DNA from: a virus
Strand: one strand, 5' to 3'
Virus record (IMG/VR): IMGVR_UViG_3300037222_000100
Coordinates: 62,001 to 126,000 of that record
Length of the DNA stretch: 64,000 nucleotides
Positions within the stretch are counted from its first letter, which is position 1, and each line of letters opens with the position of its first letter. Of the stretch, positions 25,158 through 54,239 are shown piece after piece. The translations under genes and the position numbers were made by a program. Below the pieces are notes generated by a model. That model had not been told where the DNA came from. It ran no database searches and saw nothing but the letters and a program-made list of their open reading frames with translations.

Positions 25158-25570
25158 TAGTGAACGCCCTTGATGCGATTACAACGCCCACATGCGGGAC
25201 GCAAGTTGGCTGGCCAATTCGTTCCGCCACGACTTAGGGGGATAACATGCTCGATGTGTTTTTCCTTGGGCACAAGCGCATCCCAATCGCAGCCGCAGAG
25301 ATAGCAACGCCGTCCATAAAGATCGATTCGCGCTTGTAGCTGCTCAACGGTATACGATCCGGGAGCCGAACGCCGTAGATGTTTACTTCGCCGCGTCAGA
25401 ATACGACCCCTAGGGGATGTTTTCCAGGCATGGGCGTTGCGGCTTTCTCGCTCTCTCGTAGAACGTTTAGCTCGCGTTCTTGCCATTTTGGCTTTGACCT
25501 TTTCAGGATTTTCTCGCTGCCATTTCAGGACACGCGCTCTATTTGCCTCGGCAGTCATCATCTCATCCAT
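25157..25570 (-). CDS. HNH endonuclease
   Basis: 137 aa. A basic N-terminal arm (KVKAKMARTRAKRSTRERES) is followed by YGRRCYLCGCDWDAL, IEHVIPLSRGG and NLRPACGRCNRIKG, a complete HNH with two CxxC pairs. It is the closest relative of the HNH gene at 17693-18253 in this window, but the two lie on opposite strands. It is coupled by TAATG to the following connector gene, consistent with a free-standing homing gene. Confidence 0.9.
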   Translation of the reverse strand: MDEMMTAEANRARVLKWQRENPEKVKAKMARTRAKRSTRERESRNAHAWKTSPRGRILTRRSKHLRRSAPGSYTVEQLQARIDLYGRRCYLCGCDWDALVPKEKHIEHVIPLSRGGTNWPANLRPACGRCNRIKGVH

Positions 25571-25591
25571 TATGGGTCCGGACGACGCTGC

Positions 25592-25597
25592 TATACT
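25592..25597 (+). promoter_or_regulatory. Candidate -10 box TATACT upstream of plus-strand block
   Basis: TATACT lies 48 nt before the ATG at 25640. The expected -35 region (ATTATG) is poor. Here the gene does have a Shine-Dalgarno (AAAGGA), so a short 5-prime leader is likely. Confidence 0.4.
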
Positions 25598-25639
25598 CTA
25601 CGAGTCTGATTCACCGACCCTTGACGAAAGGACTGAAGA

Positions 25640-25855
25640 ATGCCAGTGCTGTTCCCGACGTACAATCAAAAGGAGCGTGAGCAGCTTCAAGCTCTCCGCG
25701 ACCATCAGGCCAAGGTGCGCTCGCACAACGCTGCGAAAACGCGCGTTACCGCTGCGGCGGAGGCACTCTCCAACGCTGAGACGGACCACTCTGTTGCGCA
25801 GACTGAGGGGTCCCTCGCCAAGTCAACGTTGACGAGTGTGATCGATCAGGCGTAG
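25640..25855 (+). CDS. Small helical protein, unknown
   Basis: 71 aa, Ala/Gln-rich and strongly helical (EREQLQALRDHQAKVRSHNA, VTAAAEALSNAE). No known family was recognised. AAAGGA lies 7 nt upstream of the ATG. It is the first gene of the rightward block 25640-29607, with 2 nt before the next gene. It could form a coiled coil. Confidence 0.65.
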   Translation: MPVLFPTYNQKEREQLQALRDHQAKVRSHNAAKTRVTAAAEALSNAETDHSVAQTEGSLAKSTLTSVIDQA

Positions 25856-25857
25856 GC

Positions 25858-26295
25858 ATGTATCGCCATGTCGCGGTCTTCGAGCTTGAGGGTGACTTCC
25901 TGGGGTATGCAATCCGGGATGACAAGGCCCTCAAGCTCCAATCGACCAACCTGTACTCCGAGGATGAGGGACCAGAGCTTGCGGATCGCTTGCGCGAGTT
26001 GAATGAGTCGCAAGCGGTCACGGCCGTGTGGCCCGACGCTCGCGACCCGGAGGTACAGGACCTCGTAAATGACCCAGAGTTCGAGCCCATCGAGTACGTC
26101 GAAGATGACGTGGTAGATGAGGACAATTCCTTCTTGGTCTACCTCAAAGACCCCGATGGCGAAGACACGCTCGACATCGACCGCGAGGCATCGGTGCTCG
26201 TCTACAAGAAGGCTCGCGTTCCAGCGCGACCCTCCGATTACTTCGAGCGCACGAAGAAGGCGTGCGAGGTAGTTGCCCGCAGACGCGCGACCTGA
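25858..26295 (+). CDS. Acidic protein, unknown
   Basis: 145 aa, strongly acidic in the centre (PEFEPIEYVEDDVVDEDNS), with a beta-strand start (YRHVAVFELEGDFLGYAI) and basic end (KKACEVVARRRAT). No family was recognised. It starts 2 nt after the previous gene. Its 3-prime end contains the promoter of the next gene. Net charge suggests a nucleic acid mimic or interaction partner, which is speculation. Confidence 0.65.
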   Translation: MYRHVAVFELEGDFLGYAIRDDKALKLQSTNLYSEDEGPELADRLRELNESQAVTAVWPDARDPEVQDLVNDPEFEPIEYVEDDVVDEDNSFLVYLKDPDGEDTLDIDREASVLVYKKARVPARPSDYFERTKKACEVVARRRAT

Positions 26296-29607: not shown

Positions 29608-29838
29608 CGTGACTTGTCTGATAGGCTCGTCTCTCTCGTTGCGCAAGAGATACGCCGGACCTCGCTTTGCCTTCTCGATCTCGCTCTGTGGCCAAAAGGC
29701 ACGTCTATCGAGCATACCGAACGTGAGACTGTCCGTGATCAACCGCGCGCGAGTACGCTTATTGCGCCAACCCGCTATCCGTTTCACAAGGAGTTTGCGC
29801 TTGATCTTGAGCCACCGCCTGGGGGATGGGCGTTTCAT
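29584..29838 (-). CDS. Small basic protein, unknown
   Basis: 84 aa, very basic (RRWLKIKRKLLVKRIAGWRN). Its ATG overlaps the TGA of the upstream gene (ATGA), indicating co-translation with the 295-aa protein. It might be a small DNA-binding or head-associated protein. It is convergent with 29221-29607. Confidence 0.6.
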   Translation of the reverse strand: MKRPSPRRWLKIKRKLLVKRIAGWRNKRTRARLITDSLTFGMLDRRAFWPQSEIEKAKRGPAYLLRNERDEPIRQVTLEDVIHG

Positions 29839-30722
29839 GTCTTGACTGTGGGATCAACCGATACCTGGAGGCTCAGAACCTCCTCTGGCCTACCCTGGAC
29901 GCCCTTGAGACGAGCGAGCTTGTCCGCGACCGCCAGCCTAGCTGTATCGGTCAACTGGGGTCCGGTCTGGAATCCTGAGGACACGATGGCCGGGTTGCCG
30001 CCTGTCGGGACGAACTGTCGAATCTGCTCAACCTGATCTGGACGCACGATGCCGCCTAGAGGAGCTTTCGGCTTCGCGTTGGGATCGACGTAACCGACGA
30101 CTACGCCCTGTCGGTTGTACTCTGTCTCAACCGTCAGTTTGTTGATCGGCTGACCCGTCTCGTTGACGATCATGGCCAGAGTCGTGTTTGTCTTCTGGAT
30201 GTTCACGGTCTGGTTTTCTGCGATCCTCTTCGCCTCACCATCGCCGATCAACTGGATGAGTCCGGTCTGTAGGTTGGCAATCAGGATGTGATCGCTTTCA
30301 TCCTCTGGCCGAAGTGGGAACATGTCTCCACGCTGGCCACGGGGCGCGAGATCGATGCGCTCCTTTTTGTCCTGACGCTGAAGCCTAAGTGAGAACGGCG
30401 CGTTGTAACCGTTGCGTACCCATTTGGGTCCAGTCGCGTCTCGCTCTGCCTGTAGGGCGTCGGCCTCCTCGGTAGCCTCTACGACTGCCTCCTCCGTGGC
30501 CTGCTCTGCGGCAAGCCATGCCTCAACGGGCTCTGCGATCTCAGCGGGAACAGGAAGACCTGCGCCCTTGAGGTTGCTGTAGGTTTCTAGCAGCGCTGCC
30601 CATTGGGCCTCGGTCAACTCGACCGTGCGAGTCTCGATCTTCGGCGTTGCTTTCGGTGCTGCTTTGCGAGCGCGCGTTTTCGTTGCTTTGCGCTTCACGG
30701 GTGCTTTCTTCGTAGCTGGCAT
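29835..30722 (-). CDS. Virion or DNA-associated protein with histone-like N-terminal tail
   Basis: 295 aa. The first 30 residues are a Lys/Ala/Pro/Arg tail (KKAPVKRKATKTRARKAAPK), like histone H1 tails. An acidic helix with repeated EATEE follows at about residues 75-90. The rest is a beta-rich domain with WVRNGYNAPFSLRLQRQDKK and DHILIANLQTGLIQLIG. AAGGAG lies 7 nt before the ATG. It is downstream of the capsid module on the late strand, so it may be a minor head protein that contacts DNA. Unassigned. Confidence 0.6.
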   Translation of the reverse strand: MPATKKAPVKRKATKTRARKAAPKATPKIETRTVELTEAQWAALLETYSNLKGAGLPVPAEIAEPVEAWLAAEQATEEAVVEATEEADALQAERDATGPKWVRNGYNAPFSLRLQRQDKKERIDLAPRGQRGDMFPLRPEDESDHILIANLQTGLIQLIGDGEAKRIAENQTVNIQKTNTTLAMIVNETGQPINKLTVETEYNRQGVVVGYVDPNAKPKAPLGGIVRPDQVEQIRQFVPTGGNPAIVSSGFQTGPQLTDTARLAVADKLARLKGVQGRPEEVLSLQVSVDPTVKT

Positions 30723-30830
30723 GAGCCAATCTCCTTGTCGATATGTGAACCTAGCTGGTGCTGCGTACTACAACTCACCTATTCTTGCGACAGGGAGGGT
30801 TAGAAATCAGGCATATCGGCGAGCTAGTCT
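30723..30830. promoter_or_regulatory. Divergent intergenic region
   Basis: 108 nt between divergently oriented genes. It must contain signals for both. On the plus strand I see TAGTCT just before the ATG at 30831 and an isolated GGGAGG at 30793; neither is a convincing promoter or ribosome site. Confidence 0.4.
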
Positions 30831-31592
30831 ATGATGGCCATTATCACTCCGCAGGGGCATGCTCTAGGTTGGAATCGACCGCTTCCTGGGCTCACATATC
30901 CGACAGCCGATCTTTCCGGCGTGACGATCCTGTCAGAGGTTGATCCTAGACCACACATGCCGCCCGCCTTGAATCAGCTAAAACTCGGTTCGTGTACGGC
31001 GAATGCCACCAACCGCTGTTTCCGTTATGACTCGATCAAGGACGGCAAAGACTGCGGAGAGCTTTCACGACTGTGGACATACTTCTTCGAGCGCCAGATC
31101 GAGGGCACTCTCAATCAGGGCGACTGCGGAGCCATGGGCCACGACGCCTTCACCGTCGCGAAACATGGAATCCCAGATGAGACGCTTTGGCAGTACGACA
31201 TCAGCAAGTTCGAAATCAAACCGCCTAACAAGCCTCGTGCTTACACCCTGACCAAGCAGGTCAAGGCCGTACCGCAATCGCTTACTGCAATTCAGCAAGC
31301 TCTATCGGCGGGGCAGACGATTCCGTTCGGCTTCACGGTCTACTCCAGCTTTGAGTCAGAACAGGTGGCCAACACGGGTATCATGCCGATGCCGAAGCCC
31401 AACGAGGAAGTCCTTGGAGGGCATGAGGTTCTCGCTTGCGGCTATCTCAAGAAGTACCCGCACTACCTACTCGTCCTCAACAGTTGGGACGTATCGTGGG
31501 GACTCAACGGCTACTTCTTGATGCCGGTGTCGTTCATCCTGGACTCGCACTACGCCAGCGATCTGCGCACTATCGCGCGCCCCATCGCCTAA
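30831..31592 (+). CDS. Papain-like (C1A) cysteine peptidase
   Basis: 253 aa. The papain triad is visible: NQLKLGSCTANA with Cys55 (and Gln49 as the oxyanion residue), GGHEVLACGY with His198, and NSWDVSWGLNGYFLMP with Asn217. The N-terminal 45 residues resemble a short pro- or linker region with the D-x-R-x-x-x-P-P segment common in microbial C1A proteins. No signal peptide is seen, so it likely acts inside the cell or in the virion. It sits alone on the plus strand between capsid-associated genes. Two ATGs (30831, 30834) are in frame. Confidence 0.92.
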   Translation: MMAIITPQGHALGWNRPLPGLTYPTADLSGVTILSEVDPRPHMPPALNQLKLGSCTANATNRCFRYDSIKDGKDCGELSRLWTYFFERQIEGTLNQGDCGAMGHDAFTVAKHGIPDETLWQYDISKFEIKPPNKPRAYTLTKQVKAVPQSLTAIQQALSAGQTIPFGFTVYSSFESEQVANTGIMPMPKPNEEVLGGHEVLACGYLKKYPHYLLVLNSWDVSWGLNGYFLMPVSFILDSHYASDLRTIARPIA

Positions 31593-31597
31593 AGCGC

Positions 31598-31610: not shown

Positions 31611-32252
31611 ATGGGATATGATGTCCTCGGATCAGGACTATTGAAGGGCGGCGGCGTACGCGGAGCCAAGGTACGCCAGCATGTCATTCGGGGCGGCAAG
31701 CTCAGGCACTTCCCCGACGTGCATATCACCGATTCAGGTCGGATCAAGGAGCTTGTGCCGGACTTCGAGCCAGCCTTTGAATTCGAGTACACGCGGCGCG
31801 AGCTACTGCTGCTCGCGGAGAAGATGCTGCTGAACGATTCTAAGCCCGGTGGCGAGCACCCTGCGTATCTCAATGCTCATGCGTTGCGGGCGCGACAGAA
31901 ACGAGAGATATACTGCGCCAATGGAACGCCCGAACCACACATCATTCAGGGCATGTTCTGGCGCACCCATCCTCAAGGCCGTCCATGGGCGACAGAGGAG
32001 ATGCGTCGCGCCACGGGCTGTAGCTTCTACTCCGGCGTCAAACAGACCAGCCGAGAGATTCTACCTCCGCCGCCTGAGCCTCAGGAGCTAGACTGCCTAT
32101 TTGAGGGATGCATCTATCCCGTTGTCTCGTGTGGCCTCTGCGCAGCCCACACGAGACAGAAGAGGGCTGGGAAGCCGCTTGGTCCAATCAGGAGGAACCA
32201 GGGTCTATCCAAGCTCGCTAAGCGCCTGATGGCTGTCGAGGAACATCGATGA
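31611..32252 (+). CDS. Hypothetical protein with C-terminal Cys/His cluster
   Basis: 213 aa. The Gly-rich N terminus is followed by an acidic-to-basic helical region (LLLLAEKMLLNDSKPGGEHP). The C-terminal 60 residues contain CLFEGCIYP, CGLCAAHTRQKRAGKPLG, similar in spacing to the C-x4-C-x(n)-C-x2-H clusters found at the start of some HNH proteins. There is no nuclease core. The start is set by the TATACT box. It may be a DNA-binding regulator. Confidence 0.6.
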   Translation: MGYDVLGSGLLKGGGVRGAKVRQHVIRGGKLRHFPDVHITDSGRIKELVPDFEPAFEFEYTRRELLLLAEKMLLNDSKPGGEHPAYLNAHALRARQKREIYCANGTPEPHIIQGMFWRTHPQGRPWATEEMRRATGCSFYSGVKQTSREILPPPPEPQELDCLFEGCIYPVVSCGLCAAHTRQKRAGKPLGPIRRNQGLSKLAKRLMAVEEHR

Positions 32253-32424: not shown

Positions 32425-33516
32425 TTACAGCGTCCAGGTGCCAGGTGCGCCGGTTCCGAGGCCCGTGATGTCGAGCTTCGAAGGTGCAGCGTTGCTTGAC
32501 GCCTTGAGGATGCGAGACAGTCCACGCGGGTTGAGGATAAGCATTCCGACAAGCTCGTCCATGACCCATCCCTTGTAGAACTGCTCGACCTGATGGTTCT
32601 CCTCGACATCGAGAGAGTACATGACAGGGAAGACCCCGATGAACTCCGGCTCGGCTGCGAGGAAGACCTCACCCTGAGGGATGATGATCGAACGCTGGAT
32701 TTGGAACTCGCCGAAGGACGTAATACGTCCGCCTGCGAAGACCTCATCCTTGAAGCGGAACCCTGTGGCGTTGAGGTCCCAGTTGTAGAGGTCGCGAATG
32801 TCTGCCGGGTGGGCAAGCACGCGACGTGCCTCTAGCTGGTTGATCTCGATCTGAGTTACCGCGTTGTAGAAGTCAGCGGGCTCCAACGGGTTACCGGCTC
32901 CGAGGAGAACGGTGTGCTCGTTAGGCTCTGCTTCCGGTCCTGCTGCGATCCCAACTGCGCGACCACCAGTAGGTGCGAGGCCAACGACGTTGTTGGTAAG
33001 CGCTTCGCCGAGTCCTTTGATGGCCTGCTCAAGAAGTAGGACTAGACGTGCGTCCTCCTGCTTCTGGATGGCCTGACGGGACTCGTCCTGCGCGTATTCA
33101 ACCGCGTTGACTCGCAAGTAGTAGAGGTCCTCCTTGCGGATGCGTGGGAACGTCGCCAAACGGAACAGAGCAGGGAATGCCTGCTTGCCCTCGAACGGCG
33201 TGATCTTGACCTCGGCGTCAGTGCTGTTCAGCACGTACGCACGTCCAAGGTCGTCCAGGATGTCGTAAGGCATGAGGGGTCCGCGCTCTAGCGTATCCTC
33301 CACGAGGACGTTACGAACGATACCCTCGTACCTTAGACGAATCTGAATCGGGCCGATCATGCCCTGGCCGATACGACGCATCGCGTTACCCTTGTCGGCA
33401 AGGATAGCTTCGAGGCGTCCGACCTTCTGCTTCTTGGAGAGCTTCGGAAGGTCCTTTAGCTTCTCCTCGTAGTCACCAGAAGCGACTACCTGACGTTGGA
33501 AATTCTCATATCCCAT
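32425..33516 (-). CDS. Major capsid protein, HK97-type
   Basis: 363 aa. Features of HK97-fold capsid proteins of myoviruses: an N-terminal helix (YEEKLKDLPKLSKKQKVGRL), a strand pair with IQIRLRYEGIVRNVLVEDTL, the spine-helix region with EYAQDESRQAIQKQEDARLV, an A-domain with PLEPADFYNAVTQIEINQLE and AHPADIRDLYNW, and a C-terminal GWVMDELVGMLILNPRG. It assembles the icosahedral shell. GAGGCGAGACAGAC precedes the ATG. It lies downstream of decoration and protease genes, as expected, and just before the bidirectional terminator. Confidence 0.85.
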   Translation of the reverse strand: MGYENFQRQVVASGDYEEKLKDLPKLSKKQKVGRLEAILADKGNAMRRIGQGMIGPIQIRLRYEGIVRNVLVEDTLERGPLMPYDILDDLGRAYVLNSTDAEVKITPFEGKQAFPALFRLATFPRIRKEDLYYLRVNAVEYAQDESRQAIQKQEDARLVLLLEQAIKGLGEALTNNVVGLAPTGGRAVGIAAGPEAEPNEHTVLLGAGNPLEPADFYNAVTQIEINQLEARRVLAHPADIRDLYNWDLNATGFRFKDEVFAGGRITSFGEFQIQRSIIIPQGEVFLAAEPEFIGVFPVMYSLDVEENHQVEQFYKGWVMDELVGMLILNPRGLSRILKASSNAAPSKLDITGLGTGAPGTWTL

Positions 33517-34234: not shown

Positions 34235-36568
34235 TTAGCGTGTGAACAGACCGGAGTCGAGCGTCTCGTCTGTGACCGAAACCGACTCGGACTCATCGCT
34301 CGAAACACGTTCGAATGCGTGACCATCCTGGTCTACCATCCGACGATCTCCTGCCGTATGCTGGCCAAAGCCGCTTGGCATACGAGCCACGCCTGCCGTG
34401 CGCTGCTTGGCAAGCTTCTGCGTAGCCGCAGTCTTGACACGCGAGAGCATGTCTAGCTGTGCCGTGATCTGCTCGTCGTCCTGAGCGTCAAGGTCCGCGA
34501 TGCGGTTGTACTTCTCGTCCGGGCCGATCATGCCTAGCTCTGTTTCCAGATCAGTGAGCTTGATCGCCGCGATGATATGCGAAGTGAATCCCTCGGTCGC
34601 GATGGACTCCGGCGTAACCGGGTCCTGCTGACGTAGAACCTTGTTGCCCTCTGTGCCAGTCCACTGACTCGTCGGTCCAGAGTTGTTCTCCGGAGTTGCC
34701 GCTGGCTGGAGCACGTCAACGCGCTCGCCAAATGACTCGGCAACGGGCTGAACGCCCTTGACGGTCGAACCTCCGCTGAGGCCAGGCTGGTCGTAGAACG
34801 GCTTTGCGTCATACGCCTGACGGACAGACGAGTCCTTGTTCTGGTTGCCTTCGAGGCTATCAGTGGTTACTCCATCCGTGAAGCCCTTCTCGGTGCCATC
34901 GGAATCGCCATAGGTCGCGGTCGGGCCGCTGTCCTCGGTCGTTTTCGTAGCGTCGAAACCAGCGTCATCTGATCCCTCAGATGCCGTAGGCAGACTCTCA
35001 GTCTTGTCGGCGTCAACATCTGTGACGCCTGTCGTGCCTACGCTGGTAACGTCTACCTGTGCGTCGGCCTTGGATGCTGCATCGTTGCTAGGCTCGATGA
35101 CCCCACCAACGCCAGTAGCGTCAACCCGCGCGTCAGGCGAAGCCTCCGGGCCAGTAGGACCATCAGCGATCTTCGTGCTCATGGTATCTCCTTGATGGTT
35201 GTTATTGGCTGCCTCGATGAGGTCCTGCGCTGTGCGCATTGTTGCCGTGACAGGCTTAGCCGGGTTCTTCACCACAGTGGTCGTGACTGGCTCGTTCGTA
35301 GCAGGCTTTGTGGTCGTTTTGATCGGCCTTTCCTGCTGGTTGATTCGAGCAGCCACCTTTGGGTTCAGCTTTGGTTGCCAACGCATGTCACCCATTACAC
35401 TCGCGGATGCAGCGCTATTTCTAGCAGTCAAGAAGCTACCCTCCTGCTTGGGCGGTGCGTGACCTGCGGGCTCTGCGGACGGTGCTGCCGGTGTCTCTGC
35501 GCCCTGTGCCAGCGCATTATCCTGCTGAACCTCTTGCTCGCTGCCCTGCGCCATGTCGCCTTGAAGCTCTTGGGCCTTGGTCAGGTCGGGGTTATCCATA
35601 CCCTTGGGCGGCTCGACATATCCACACACATCACACGTCTCGCCCTCCATCGTCTCGCCGCAGATTGGGCAAGCGTGCTCTTCACGCATGGTGTCTACAT
35701 CTTCGGGTGCCGATGGCAGGAAGGACTGAGGTAGTGCATTCTCAGCCGTCTTGCCCAAGCCCTCGTCGTTGACGCTCGCACGGATTTCACGGGCGAGCGC
35801 TGTCTCGTCAGCGGGATCGAACACGCCGCTGATCTCGAAGAAGTGAATGCCGTAGCAGTTCTCGTAGCTCTTACGCGAGATGCGTTTGCCATCCGCCGTC
35901 TTGTAGTCGTGATGCGCACCCTTCATGACGATGTGCGAGCAGTACTCGTCGGGGTTGGTCGCCACATGACCGCAGTGCGAACACTTCGAGCGCTCGACAT
36001 CGCAGCCCATGGAGAATCCGTCGAGGTCGCCACTACGAACGGCCTTGGCGTACGTCGGAAAGGTCTTGGCGTCGATCTCCAGGAGTAGCTCGACCTCAGT
36101 CGGCGGAGCGTGCTCAGGGTCCATGCTCTCGCTGCCCCAGTAGGTGTCACCACTCGCTGCGGTGTGCTCTATCGGAAGGACTTTGAGCTTGCTGTCTACT
36201 ACGACGCCGCGAGCGCGAGACGGATCGGAGTTGTTGTGATCGATGAAGTTTGGCTTGCCGATGAAGGTCGCGAATCCAAACTGCTTGTCGCCATCCGCCG
36301 CCTCGACCGTAAAGCCGGTCGCAGACTGCTTAGCGTGACGGTCGAAGACCTCAGAGCCTCCAGCAAGCTCGACAGACGGCCAGCCATCGTGGTTCTTGTT
36401 GACGCGGCTAGAGATCGCACGCAGGCGTACGTACATGTAGCCATCGTCGGTGCGGTAGTCGTGGAAGTCACTCAGCTTGTCGAGCGTGGCTGTGCGACGC
36501 CGCGAAGGCGAGCCCTTGACCTCAAGGACCTCCGCATCTTCGAAGCTCGCGAACTTGGTGAAGCTCAT
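34235..36568 (-). CDS. Prohead protease fused to scaffold-like region, with zinc ribbons
   Basis: 777 aa from ATG 36566-36568; the frame is open to 36625 but ATAACTACTGAG precedes this ATG. Residues 40-260 form a herpesvirus/T4-type prohead protease: FIDHNNSDPSRARG (candidate His111) and DGFSMGCDVE (candidate Ser186). A C-C-C-H zinc site is inserted at 196-212 (CSHCGH, YCSH). A second ribbon, CPICGETMEGETCDVCGY, sits at about residues 300-320. From 330 onward it is acidic, low-complexity and helical, as expected for a scaffold or delta domain. It should cleave itself and the head proteins during maturation. Confidence 0.8.
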   Translation of the reverse strand: MSFTKFASFEDAEVLEVKGSPSRRRTATLDKLSDFHDYRTDDGYMYVRLRAISSRVNKNHDGWPSVELAGGSEVFDRHAKQSATGFTVEAADGDKQFGFATFIGKPNFIDHNNSDPSRARGVVVDSKLKVLPIEHTAASGDTYWGSESMDPEHAPPTEVELLLEIDAKTFPTYAKAVRSGDLDGFSMGCDVERSKCSHCGHVATNPDEYCSHIVMKGAHHDYKTADGKRISRKSYENCYGIHFFEISGVFDPADETALAREIRASVNDEGLGKTAENALPQSFLPSAPEDVDTMREEHACPICGETMEGETCDVCGYVEPPKGMDNPDLTKAQELQGDMAQGSEQEVQQDNALAQGAETPAAPSAEPAGHAPPKQEGSFLTARNSAASASVMGDMRWQPKLNPKVAARINQQERPIKTTTKPATNEPVTTTVVKNPAKPVTATMRTAQDLIEAANNNHQGDTMSTKIADGPTGPEASPDARVDATGVGGVIEPSNDAASKADAQVDVTSVGTTGVTDVDADKTESLPTASEGSDDAGFDATKTTEDSGPTATYGDSDGTEKGFTDGVTTDSLEGNQNKDSSVRQAYDAKPFYDQPGLSGGSTVKGVQPVAESFGERVDVLQPAATPENNSGPTSQWTGTEGNKVLRQQDPVTPESIATEGFTSHIIAAIKLTDLETELGMIGPDEKYNRIADLDAQDDEQITAQLDMLSRVKTAATQKLAKQRTAGVARMPSGFGQHTAGDRRMVDQDGHAFERVSSDESESVSVTDETLDSGLFTR

Positions 36569-36618
36569 CTCAGTAGTTATGCGGTAGCAAGGCCGCAAAC
36601 CTATGGTGCCTGAAGCTC

Positions 36619-36647
36619 TTGACACGGAGTAGCTTATCCTGTAGACT
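36619..36647 (+). promoter_or_regulatory. Sigma70-like promoter, leaderless
   Basis: TTGACA (36619-36624), 17-nt spacer, TAGACT (36642-36647). The ATG is at 36655, 13 nt from the start of the -10 box. Confidence 0.85.
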
Positions 36648-53205: not shown

Positions 53206-53700
53206 ATGTCTAACCTGCTCGAATGGGAGGGACCTGACGACGCACCGCTGTCGGACGTGTCTGCTTGGGTCGATGCGAATATCAAGGAGGGCGTCGTCTG
53301 TCCGATCACCGGGCGTACGATCAAGATGTGGGTGCAGAAGCTCGACACGAACATGGCGCAGAGCCTCATTCGCCTGTACAAAGTTGCTCCATCGAGAGCC
53401 TTCGTCCACTATCCCACGGCGCTCGCGCACCTGACCCCCAAAGGCCAAGACAACCACAAGATCAGCCAACTCAAGTGGTGGTACTTTGTCGAGGAGGAGT
53501 TGACGCTGCGCCCGGATGGAGGACGCGCTGGCTATTGGCGCATCACCGAGCCAGGAATCAAATTCGTCCTGGATGAGATCAAGGTGCCCGCCAAAGCTTT
53601 GACCTGGAGAGGCGAAGTCGAAGACTGGTCGGGCGAGGAAATCGGAATCACCGACGCCCTCGGTGAGAGCTTCATCTACAGGGAGCTAATGGACGCATGA
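53206..53700 (+). CDS. Hypothetical protein, possibly winged-helix
   Basis: 164 aa. The region HKISQLKWWYFVEEELTLRP, GYWRITEPGIKFVLDEIKVP resembles a winged-helix: helix pair then R-x-G-Y-W-R-I-T-x-x-G wing. AAAAGGAAACGCTGAG lies upstream of the ATG. It is likely a DNA-binding protein of unknown role. Confidence 0.7.
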   Translation: MSNLLEWEGPDDAPLSDVSAWVDANIKEGVVCPITGRTIKMWVQKLDTNMAQSLIRLYKVAPSRAFVHYPTALAHLTPKGQDNHKISQLKWWYFVEEELTLRPDGGRAGYWRITEPGIKFVLDEIKVPAKALTWRGEVEDWSGEEIGITDALGESFIYRELMDA

Positions 53701-54239
53701 GTGGACATTGGTGGACATACGATGATGGCGGTCGTGCCGCTGCGGGCTACAAGGGCACCACAGGAGACTGCGTGACGCGCTCTATAGCCATCGCCACGGG
53801 TCTGCCCTACCAGGAGGTCTACGATGCCCTGAACATCGCTCGTGCGCACCCTGTCGCGGCTAGTCCGGCAACGAGACGCAAGCTCATCAACTCCTCTGCG
53901 CGTACGGGACTCCATCGACGCACCTATCAGCAGTTCTTGGAGGACATCGGTTGGGTCTGGACCCCCACCATGAGCATCGGCTCAGGATGTCGCATGCATC
54001 TCTTGCGCGATGAGCTTCCTTCTGGTAGACTCATCTGCAAAGTGAGCAAGCATTTGGTCGCCGTCATCGATGGCGTCATTCGAGAGTCTCTAATGGAGAA
54101 GCGCCCACCGCAACCCCCTCCGACCTCAGAAGCCGTGTCTTCTGGCGTTGGCTGCTCTCGCTGTGGCTGTCGCCCCCGAGCACCCCAAGACATCGTATGC
54201 GACCCCTGTCGCAAGAAGCTTGACAAGGAGAAATCATGA
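53697..54239 (+). CDS. Possible papain/C39-fold cysteine protein with zinc ribbon
   Basis: 180 aa. Residues 20-40 contain GTTGDCVTRSIAIATGLPYQ, in which Cys starts a helix as in C39/papain-fold peptidases, and later KHLVAVIDGVI offers a His on a strand. This family is widespread and uncharacterised in phages; activity is inferred. The C-terminal CSRCGCRPRAPQDIVCDPC is a zinc ribbon. ATGA overlaps at both ends. Confidence 0.65.
   Translation: MSGHWWTYDDGGRAAAGYKGTTGDCVTRSIAIATGLPYQEVYDALNIARAHPVAASPATRRKLINSSARTGLHRRTYQQFLEDIGWVWTPTMSIGSGCRMHLLRDELPSGRLICKVSKHLVAVIDGVIRESLMEKRPPQPPPTSEAVSSGVGCSRCGCRPRAPQDIVCDPCRKKLDKEKS

What the first reader, a model, noticed from the sequence alone, without database searches (positions are those of the whole stretch)
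30831..31592. Papain-like cysteine peptidase within the capsid neighbourhood
Cys55, His198, Asn217 and Gln49 are all present with normal context. It lies alone on the plus strand between the basic-tailed protein and the capsid genes. A C1A peptidase in addition to the prohead protease is unusual. It may process host proteins or virion components.
Basis: partly seen in the sequence, partly recalled or inferred. Interest (0 to 1): 0.6.

Follow-up and report, generated by a model that had tools for sequence, protein, structure and literature searches.

The report
Phage papain-like protease beside capsid genes
An uncultured tailed phage carries an intact, evolutionarily maintained papain-type protein-cutting enzyme next to its capsid genes; enzymes of this type were already known in phages, but close relatives keep refilling the same spot with other papain-like or cell-wall enzymes, which hints at a job in breaking the host cell open or disabling host proteins.

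Summary
ORF 30831-31592(+) is a 253-aa xylellain-type C1A peptidase: Pfam Peptidase_C1 5.5e-12, PDB 3ois 6.6e-24, AlphaFold pLDDT 94.6, Foldseek to xylellain TM 0.83. Q49/C55/H198/N217 are real; C55, H198 and N217 are invariant in 78 viral and 80 cellular relatives, and dN/dS is 0.13-0.29, so it is not a dead passenger. It is not alone on the plus strand: a second plus-strand gene starts 18 nt downstream. It is not rare: at least 437 viral-contig relatives, and xylellain-type C1A in Caudoviricetes is published (PMC10380794). The phage is an uncultured relative of Bxz1/Myrna-type myoviruses. What is interesting is the slot between MCP and the basic-tailed gene: relatives with ~90% identical MCPs lack the gene or carry a different papain-fold protein there (phrog_19005; hhalign 95.5%, AlphaFold plus Foldseek to xylellain). 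More distant relatives carry an NlpC/P60-like or transglycosylase-like protein. The two same-slot C1A copies are not sisters (p-AU 0.0035), so the gene moves between phages. Best reading: an active accessory peptidase, most likely lysis- or envelope-related; host-protein cleavage is a close rival, capsid maturation unlikely. Substrate unknown. New member of a known kind; modest interest.

The parts
30831..31592 (+). xylellain-type C1A cysteine peptidase, 253 aa; Gln49 oxyanion hole, Cys55 nucleophile, His198, Asn217; no signal peptide or membrane segment seen by eye
30993..30995 (+). codon of catalytic Cys55 (in relative L099 an intein sits immediately before the equivalent codon)
   Evidence: sequence; alignment; intein
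31611..32252 (+). second gene of the plus-strand unit, 213 aa, DUF7236-like (Pfam 3.1e-5, below gathering score) with HNH-endonuclease-like C-terminal matches; conserved next to the peptidase in L024
32375..32405 (.). 13-bp-stem hairpin with T tract between the convergent plus-strand unit and the MCP gene (terminator-like, nearly palindromic)
30779..31595 (.). segment with no counterpart in relative L089, which has flanking sequence on both sides: about one gene long, the presence/absence unit
29835..30722 (-). flanking gene with a basic N-terminus; conserved left boundary of the slot in relatives
32425..33516 (-). major capsid protein (phrog_2522 3.4e-92; NF042927 6.8e-105); right boundary of the slot
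34235..36625 (-). protein with head maturation protease match (phrog_18299, 5.5e-22): the resident prohead protease

Best explanation
SHOWN by sequence and structure prediction: the gene encodes a complete xylellain-type C1A (papain family, clan CA) cysteine peptidase with an intact Gln-Cys-His-Asn site, under purifying selection, in a separate plus-strand two-gene unit inserted between the capsid gene and a basic-tailed structural-block gene of an uncultured myovirus related to Bxz1/Myrna. It is an accessory gene that moves between phage lineages, not part of the conserved capsid machinery. INFERRED: the enzyme is made as a soluble cytoplasmic protein and cuts L-peptide bonds by the ordinary thiol mechanism (Cys55 attacks the carbonyl, His198 is general base, Asn217 orients His198, Gln49 forms the oxyanion hole). 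Its N-terminal ~36 residues, which align with the xylellain N-terminus, may gate the cleft. MOST LIKELY ROLE (about 40%): an accessory lysis or envelope peptidase, released when the holin/endolysin system opens the membrane, that cleaves envelope or wall-associated proteins or peptides and eases release. The slot is filled in relatives by other papain-fold or wall-active enzymes, so the phages seem to select for this general kind of activity there.
For: Identity. Invariant active site in 78 viral and 80 cellular homologues, dN/dS 0.13-0.29 where dS is not saturated. Presence/absence: L089 (MCP 92% identical) lacks it cleanly. Same-slot substitutes: phrog_19005 in 16 of 48 intact intervals (about 11 distinct lineages); C1A in 3 (2 lineages); an NlpC/P60-like protein, in several cases with a signal-peptide-like N-terminus, in 9; a transglycosylase-like protein in L053. 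phrog_19005 is papain-fold: hhalign prob 95.5, E 1.4e-8 against the C1A profile, while 26 decoy comparisons and a reversed profile stay at or below prob 1; AlphaFold pTM 0.81, Foldseek best hit xylellain 3ois, prob 1.00, TM 0.58. C1A and phrog_19005 never co-occur in 31 whole records. Lysis links elsewhere: Alicyclobacillus phage MMB025 fuses a C1A domain to a Rv2525c-like glycoside-hydrolase domain and PG_binding_1, annotated endolysin; a phrog_19005-like gene overlaps an amidase gene in MW202816; papain-family 'N5' domains occur in mycobacteriophage LysA (PMC3314691).
Against: No signal peptide, wall-binding domain or transmembrane segment in the window protein. It lies on the strand opposite to the structural genes. 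Direct neighbours of viral C1A genes in general show no lysis enrichment: among 142 flanking proteins, 1 Amidase_2, 1 phage lysozyme and 2 Rz-like. C1A enzymes are not known to cut the D-amino-acid bonds of peptidoglycan (own knowledge). The phage has its own candidate lysis pair elsewhere (record 25459-26175 and 25179-25394), though this assignment is by eye only. The NlpC/P60 occupant is a different papain-fold superfamily, so equivalence of function is inference.
Confidence: 0.4

Rival explanations
1. Host-takeover or counter-defence peptidase: the enzyme acts in the cytoplasm during infection and cleaves one or a few host proteins (defence sensor, transcription factor or similar).
For: Cytoplasmic sequence; plus-strand, patchy, mobile accessory gene; rapid replacement at one slot by other papain-fold proteins fits an arms race; viral C1A homologues sit in highly varied contexts, including Burkholderia jumbo phage FLC9, where it is a lone gene against the strand of its neighbours.
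Against: No target, no defence-linked neighbour; the same slot holds exported-looking wall enzymes in other relatives; lysin fusion or adjacency in MMB025 and MW202816.
Confidence: 0.33
2. Virion maturation peptidase: it cleaves capsid or tail proteins during assembly or travels in the virion.
For: It sits next to the MCP; in the unrelated phage L099 the homologue lies just upstream of a Mu-I-like protease/cement/MCP module.
Against: Absent or substituted in relatives with 88-92% identical MCP; a dedicated head maturation protease is present; opposite strand to the structural genes; other homologues are far from capsid genes.
Confidence: 0.1
3. Inactive or selfish passenger brought in with the neighbouring HNH-like gene and kept without benefit.
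For: The slot also collects HNH-type genes; presence/absence is patchy.
Against: Catalytic residues invariant across 158 homologues, low dN/dS, intact in two diverged same-slot lineages, and an intein at the active-site Cys in L099 that would need splicing to leave a functional enzyme.
Confidence: 0.05

Closest known systems
Xylellain (Xylella fastidiosa cysteine protease, PDB 3ois), short bacterial C1A peptidases
   Same: Best hit by sequence (6.6e-24; profile 5.6e-85) and by fold (TM 0.83, 28% identity); N-terminal segment and all catalytic residues align
   Different: Encoded by a phage, shorter (253 against 291 aa chain), degenerate GWxPDxPDxRD N-terminal motif, no export signal seen
Xylellain-type C1A peptidases of Myoviridae/Siphoviridae and Mimiviridae noted in PMC10380794
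   Same: Same kind of enzyme in tailed phages, acquired horizontally
   Different: The passage read there gives no capsid-slot location, displacement by another papain-fold family, or function
phrog_19005 (unknown function) papain-fold proteins of the same phage group
   Same: Same genomic slot and strand, same predicted fold, Cys and His conserved
   Different: About 15% identity in the profile alignment; Asn at the Gln position and Thr where C1A has Asn; no Pfam family at gathering score
Papain-family N5 domain of mycobacteriophage LysA (PMC3314691)
   Same: Papain-family domain in actinobacteriophage lysis enzymes
   Different: C39-like, fused to amidase/glycosidase and wall-binding domains; the window protein is a stand-alone C1A

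Membership tests
Peptidase family C1A (papain), xylellain-type | Profile match to Pfam Peptidase_C1 above gathering score | tested here: met
   46.7 bits against cut-off 20.7
Peptidase family C1A (papain), xylellain-type | Gln-Cys-His-Asn catalytic residues in order, with GSC and NSW contexts | tested here: met
   Q49, C55, H198, N217-S218-W219; C55, H198 and N217 invariant in 158 homologues, Q49 in all but one (a gap)
Peptidase family C1A (papain), xylellain-type | Papain fold, nearest solved structure xylellain | tested here: met
   AlphaFold pLDDT 94.6, Foldseek 3ois TM 0.83
Peptidase family C1A (papain), xylellain-type | Thiol peptidase activity, inhibition by E-64 | not testable with these tools
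   needs biochemistry
Caudoviricetes prohead/maturation proteases (U9, S14, S78 and others) | Serine-type protease fold or match to a known maturation protease family | tested here: not met
   only a C1 / phrog_16701 'peptidase' match; the resident maturation protease is 34235-36625
Endolysin (LysA) of actinobacteriophages | Fusion to a glycosidase/amidase or wall-binding domain | tested here: not met
   single C1A domain over the whole length
Endolysin (LysA) of actinobacteriophages | Location in a holin/lysin cassette | tested here: not met
   neighbours are capsid-block genes and a DUF7236/HNH-like gene; candidate lysis pair lies at record 25179-26175, far away
phrog_19005 as a papain-fold family | Homology to C1A beyond decoys and papain fold | tested here: met
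   hhalign 95.5% against decoys at or below 1%; Foldseek prob 1.00 to 3ois and cathepsins from a moderate-confidence model

The most novel reading that the evidence does not exclude
The slot beside the capsid gene in this phage group is a dedicated niche for papain-fold hydrolases: C1A, phrog_19005 and NlpC/P60-like enzymes replace one another there repeatedly because they do one shared job, such as an accessory lysis step or cleavage of a shared host target. phrog_19005 would then be an undescribed papain-fold peptidase family with a Cys-His-Thr variant active site.
Probability: 0.3. Interest if true: 0.6.

Novelty: new member of a known kind. Interest (0 to 1): 0.42.

Why it matters
Phage-encoded C1A peptidases turn out to be widespread in viral contigs, with intact active sites, and no function for them was found in the papers searched. 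The slot comparison here gives a natural experiment (C1A, phrog_19005, NlpC/P60-like or nothing beside nearly the same capsid gene) from which the function could be worked out, and it assigns a fold and a likely catalytic pair to phrog_19005, a family listed as unknown function.

Tried and rejected
A single-occurrence oddity: rejected, at least 437 viral and 296 cellular loci. General lysis-cassette membership by neighbour tally: no enrichment among 142 flanking proteins. Search for another wall hydrolase in the own genome: no Amidase_2, PG_binding_1, M23, CHAP or Rpf-like transglycosylase match at E 0.1; a sub-cut-off NlpC/P60 match only in the tail-hub-like protein; a by-eye glycoside-hydrolase-like plus small membrane pair gave no informative Pfam, PHROG, phage-record or PDB match. 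Genome-contig search with the 8-row alignment failed for lack of conserved columns and was repeated with 5 rows. Profile of phrog_19005 against PDB sequences: no match; only the fold comparison reached it. Profile comparison of phrog_19005 with the NlpC/P60-like occupant: no similarity found, so those two are linked only by slot and broad fold class. Isolated Bxz1/Myrna/Finch-type phages: no C1A annotated beside the MCP, and the phage-record search found C1A in only three other records.

Full report
1. The observation. The ORF at 30831-31592(+) is real, 253 aa. It matches Pfam Peptidase_C1 (5.5e-12, above the gathering score), phrog_16701 'peptidase' (1.9e-10) and xylellain 3ois (6.6e-24). Gln49, Cys55, His198 and Asn217 align with the catalytic residues of xylellain. 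With a 38-sequence alignment AlphaFold gives mean pLDDT 94.6 and pTM 0.92, and Foldseek's best PDB hit is xylellain (E 2.4e-20, TM 0.83). Two details of the finding need correction. The gene is not alone: 31611-32252(+) starts 18 nt downstream (DUF7236/HNH-like), and the pair ends at a strong hairpin terminator facing the MCP gene. The most likely start is ATG 30831 or 30834.

2. The phage. The window is 62001-126000 of a 167,869-base virus record. The MCP (phrog_2522) is 54-58% identical to those of Myrna, Phabba, Bxz1-type mycobacteriophages and Rhodococcus phage Finch, so this is an uncultured relative of those myoviruses. The host is unknown; the nearest cellular homologue of the peptidase is a Solirubrobacterales gene (51%, L180) in a stretch with no phage genes recognised by eye, which makes an actinobacterial host plausible.

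3. Active and maintained. Across 78 viral and 80 cellular homologues Cys55, His198 and Asn217 are invariant, Gln49 too but for one gap. Pairwise dN/dS between the window gene and its nearest relatives is 0.13-0.29 where synonymous sites are not saturated. In phage contig L099 the homologue carries a ~361-residue intein (Pfam Intein_splicing 1.9e-9, LAGLIDADG_3 2.6e-6) placed exactly before the catalytic Cys, so that the nucleophile is also the +1 splice residue. This speaks strongly against the 'inactive passenger' reading for the family as a whole; activity itself is not shown.

4. Frequency. PMC10380794 states that xylellain-type C1A peptidases were acquired by Mimiviridae, Myoviridae and Siphoviridae. 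The claim that a C1A peptidase in a phage is unusual therefore fails.

5. The slot. Seventy-eight loci with related MCPs were fetched. In L089 (MCP 92% identical) the peptidase segment (window 30779-31595) is absent while sequence on both sides is present. In L024 (MCP 90%) a C1A gene 68% identical sits at the same place with the same downstream neighbour, and a truncated third copy (47%) lies at the end of L048. In 16 of 48 loci with both slot borders found (about 11 distinct lineages; several loci are near-copies) the place is taken by an unrelated-looking ~250-aa protein of phrog_19005. Nine more distant relatives have a protein of one cluster, three of which were tested and gave weak NlpC/P60 matches (5e-4 to 5e-3, below the gathering score), and L053 has a transglycosylase-like protein. 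The rest have nothing recognisable or other genes (HNH, NAMPT/NadM-like and others).

6. phrog_19005 is papain-fold. The profile of 12 slot-type proteins aligns with the C1A profile over 200 columns (hhalign prob 95.5, E 1.4e-8); Cys and His fall on the C1A Cys and His. Twenty-six comparisons with 13 unrelated families of these phages, and a reversed profile, give prob 1 or less. AlphaFold (pLDDT 77, pTM 0.81) followed by Foldseek gives xylellain first, then cathepsins, prob 1.00. The oxyanion Gln is replaced by Asn and the third residue by Thr, so the active site is a variant and activity is inferred. In 31 whole records C1A and phrog_19005 never co-occur; three records carry phrog_19005 outside the slot.

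7. History. The window gene belongs to a nine-member all-viral group with genes from unrelated phages (L097-L100, L102, L103, L108), nearest to the Solirubrobacterales gene. The same-slot copy in L024 groups with L097/L099/L100 (99/98), and a tree joining it with the window gene is rejected (p-AU 0.0035; the pair was chosen for its shared slot, but after a first tree was seen, so the p-value is somewhat optimistic). The gene therefore moved between phage lineages, and the slot received C1A twice or had one copy replaced by another.

8. Function. Shown: an intact, selected, mobile C1A enzyme gene. Inferred: its role. Lysis or envelope work is favoured (about 40%) because sister lineages fill the slot with wall-active enzyme types and because a phage C1A domain is fused to a glycoside-hydrolase-like and a peptidoglycan-binding domain in MMB025, while a phrog_19005-like gene overlaps an amidase gene in MW202816. 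Against it, neighbours of viral C1A genes in general show no lysis enrichment, the protein has no export or wall-binding part, and it is encoded opposite to the structural block. Cleavage of host proteins is a close rival (33%). Virion maturation is unlikely (10%).

9. Verdict. A sound observation of an ordinary kind of phage accessory enzyme in an interesting place. The slot replacement and the fold assignment of phrog_19005 are the parts worth following.

Noticed in passing
L099:378-2585 (IMGVR_UViG_3300036831_000048): A ~361-residue intein with LAGLIDADG-like domain lies exactly before the catalytic Cys of a phage C1A peptidase (GS|CFPAGT...VHN|CTANAT), so the peptidase nucleophile is also the splicing +1 Cys.
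   Followed up: partly
L041:16761-17552 (-): Next to a phrog_19005 gene, a 263-aa protein with an MDCSWAV...HAVMVL pattern that looks like another papain-fold/NlpC-like enzyme; no Pfam match.
   Followed up: partly
own record 144805-145392 (-) (L011:18805-19392): A second possible papain-fold enzyme in the same phage: weak match to permuted papain-like amidase Peptidase_C92 (E 0.0019, below cut-off).
   Followed up: partly
window 53697-54239 (+): 180-aa protein with TGDCVTRSIAIATG...KHLVAVIDGVI motif, by eye papain/C39-like; no Pfam match.
   Followed up: partly
own record 25179-26175 (-) (L012:3179-4175): By eye a glycoside-hydrolase-like lysin followed by a 71-aa membrane protein, candidate lysis cassette; no informative Pfam, PHROG, phage-record or PDB match.
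   Followed up: partly
own record 152817-155734 (-) (L013): Series of small proteins with an N-terminal membrane segment, three of them with collagen-like repeats.
   Followed up: no
L008:9929-12190 (Alicyclobacillus phage MMB025): A 753-aa protein fuses a C1A domain, Ig-like domain, Rv2525c-like glycoside-hydrolase domain and PG_binding_1, annotated endolysin.
   Followed up: yes
L051, L057, L060, L063, L066, L067, L068, L072, L092 (MCP to basic-tailed gene interval): Conserved NlpC/P60-like proteins, in several cases with a signal-like N-terminus, on the strand opposite to the MCP in the slot that holds the C1A gene in the window.
   Followed up: partly
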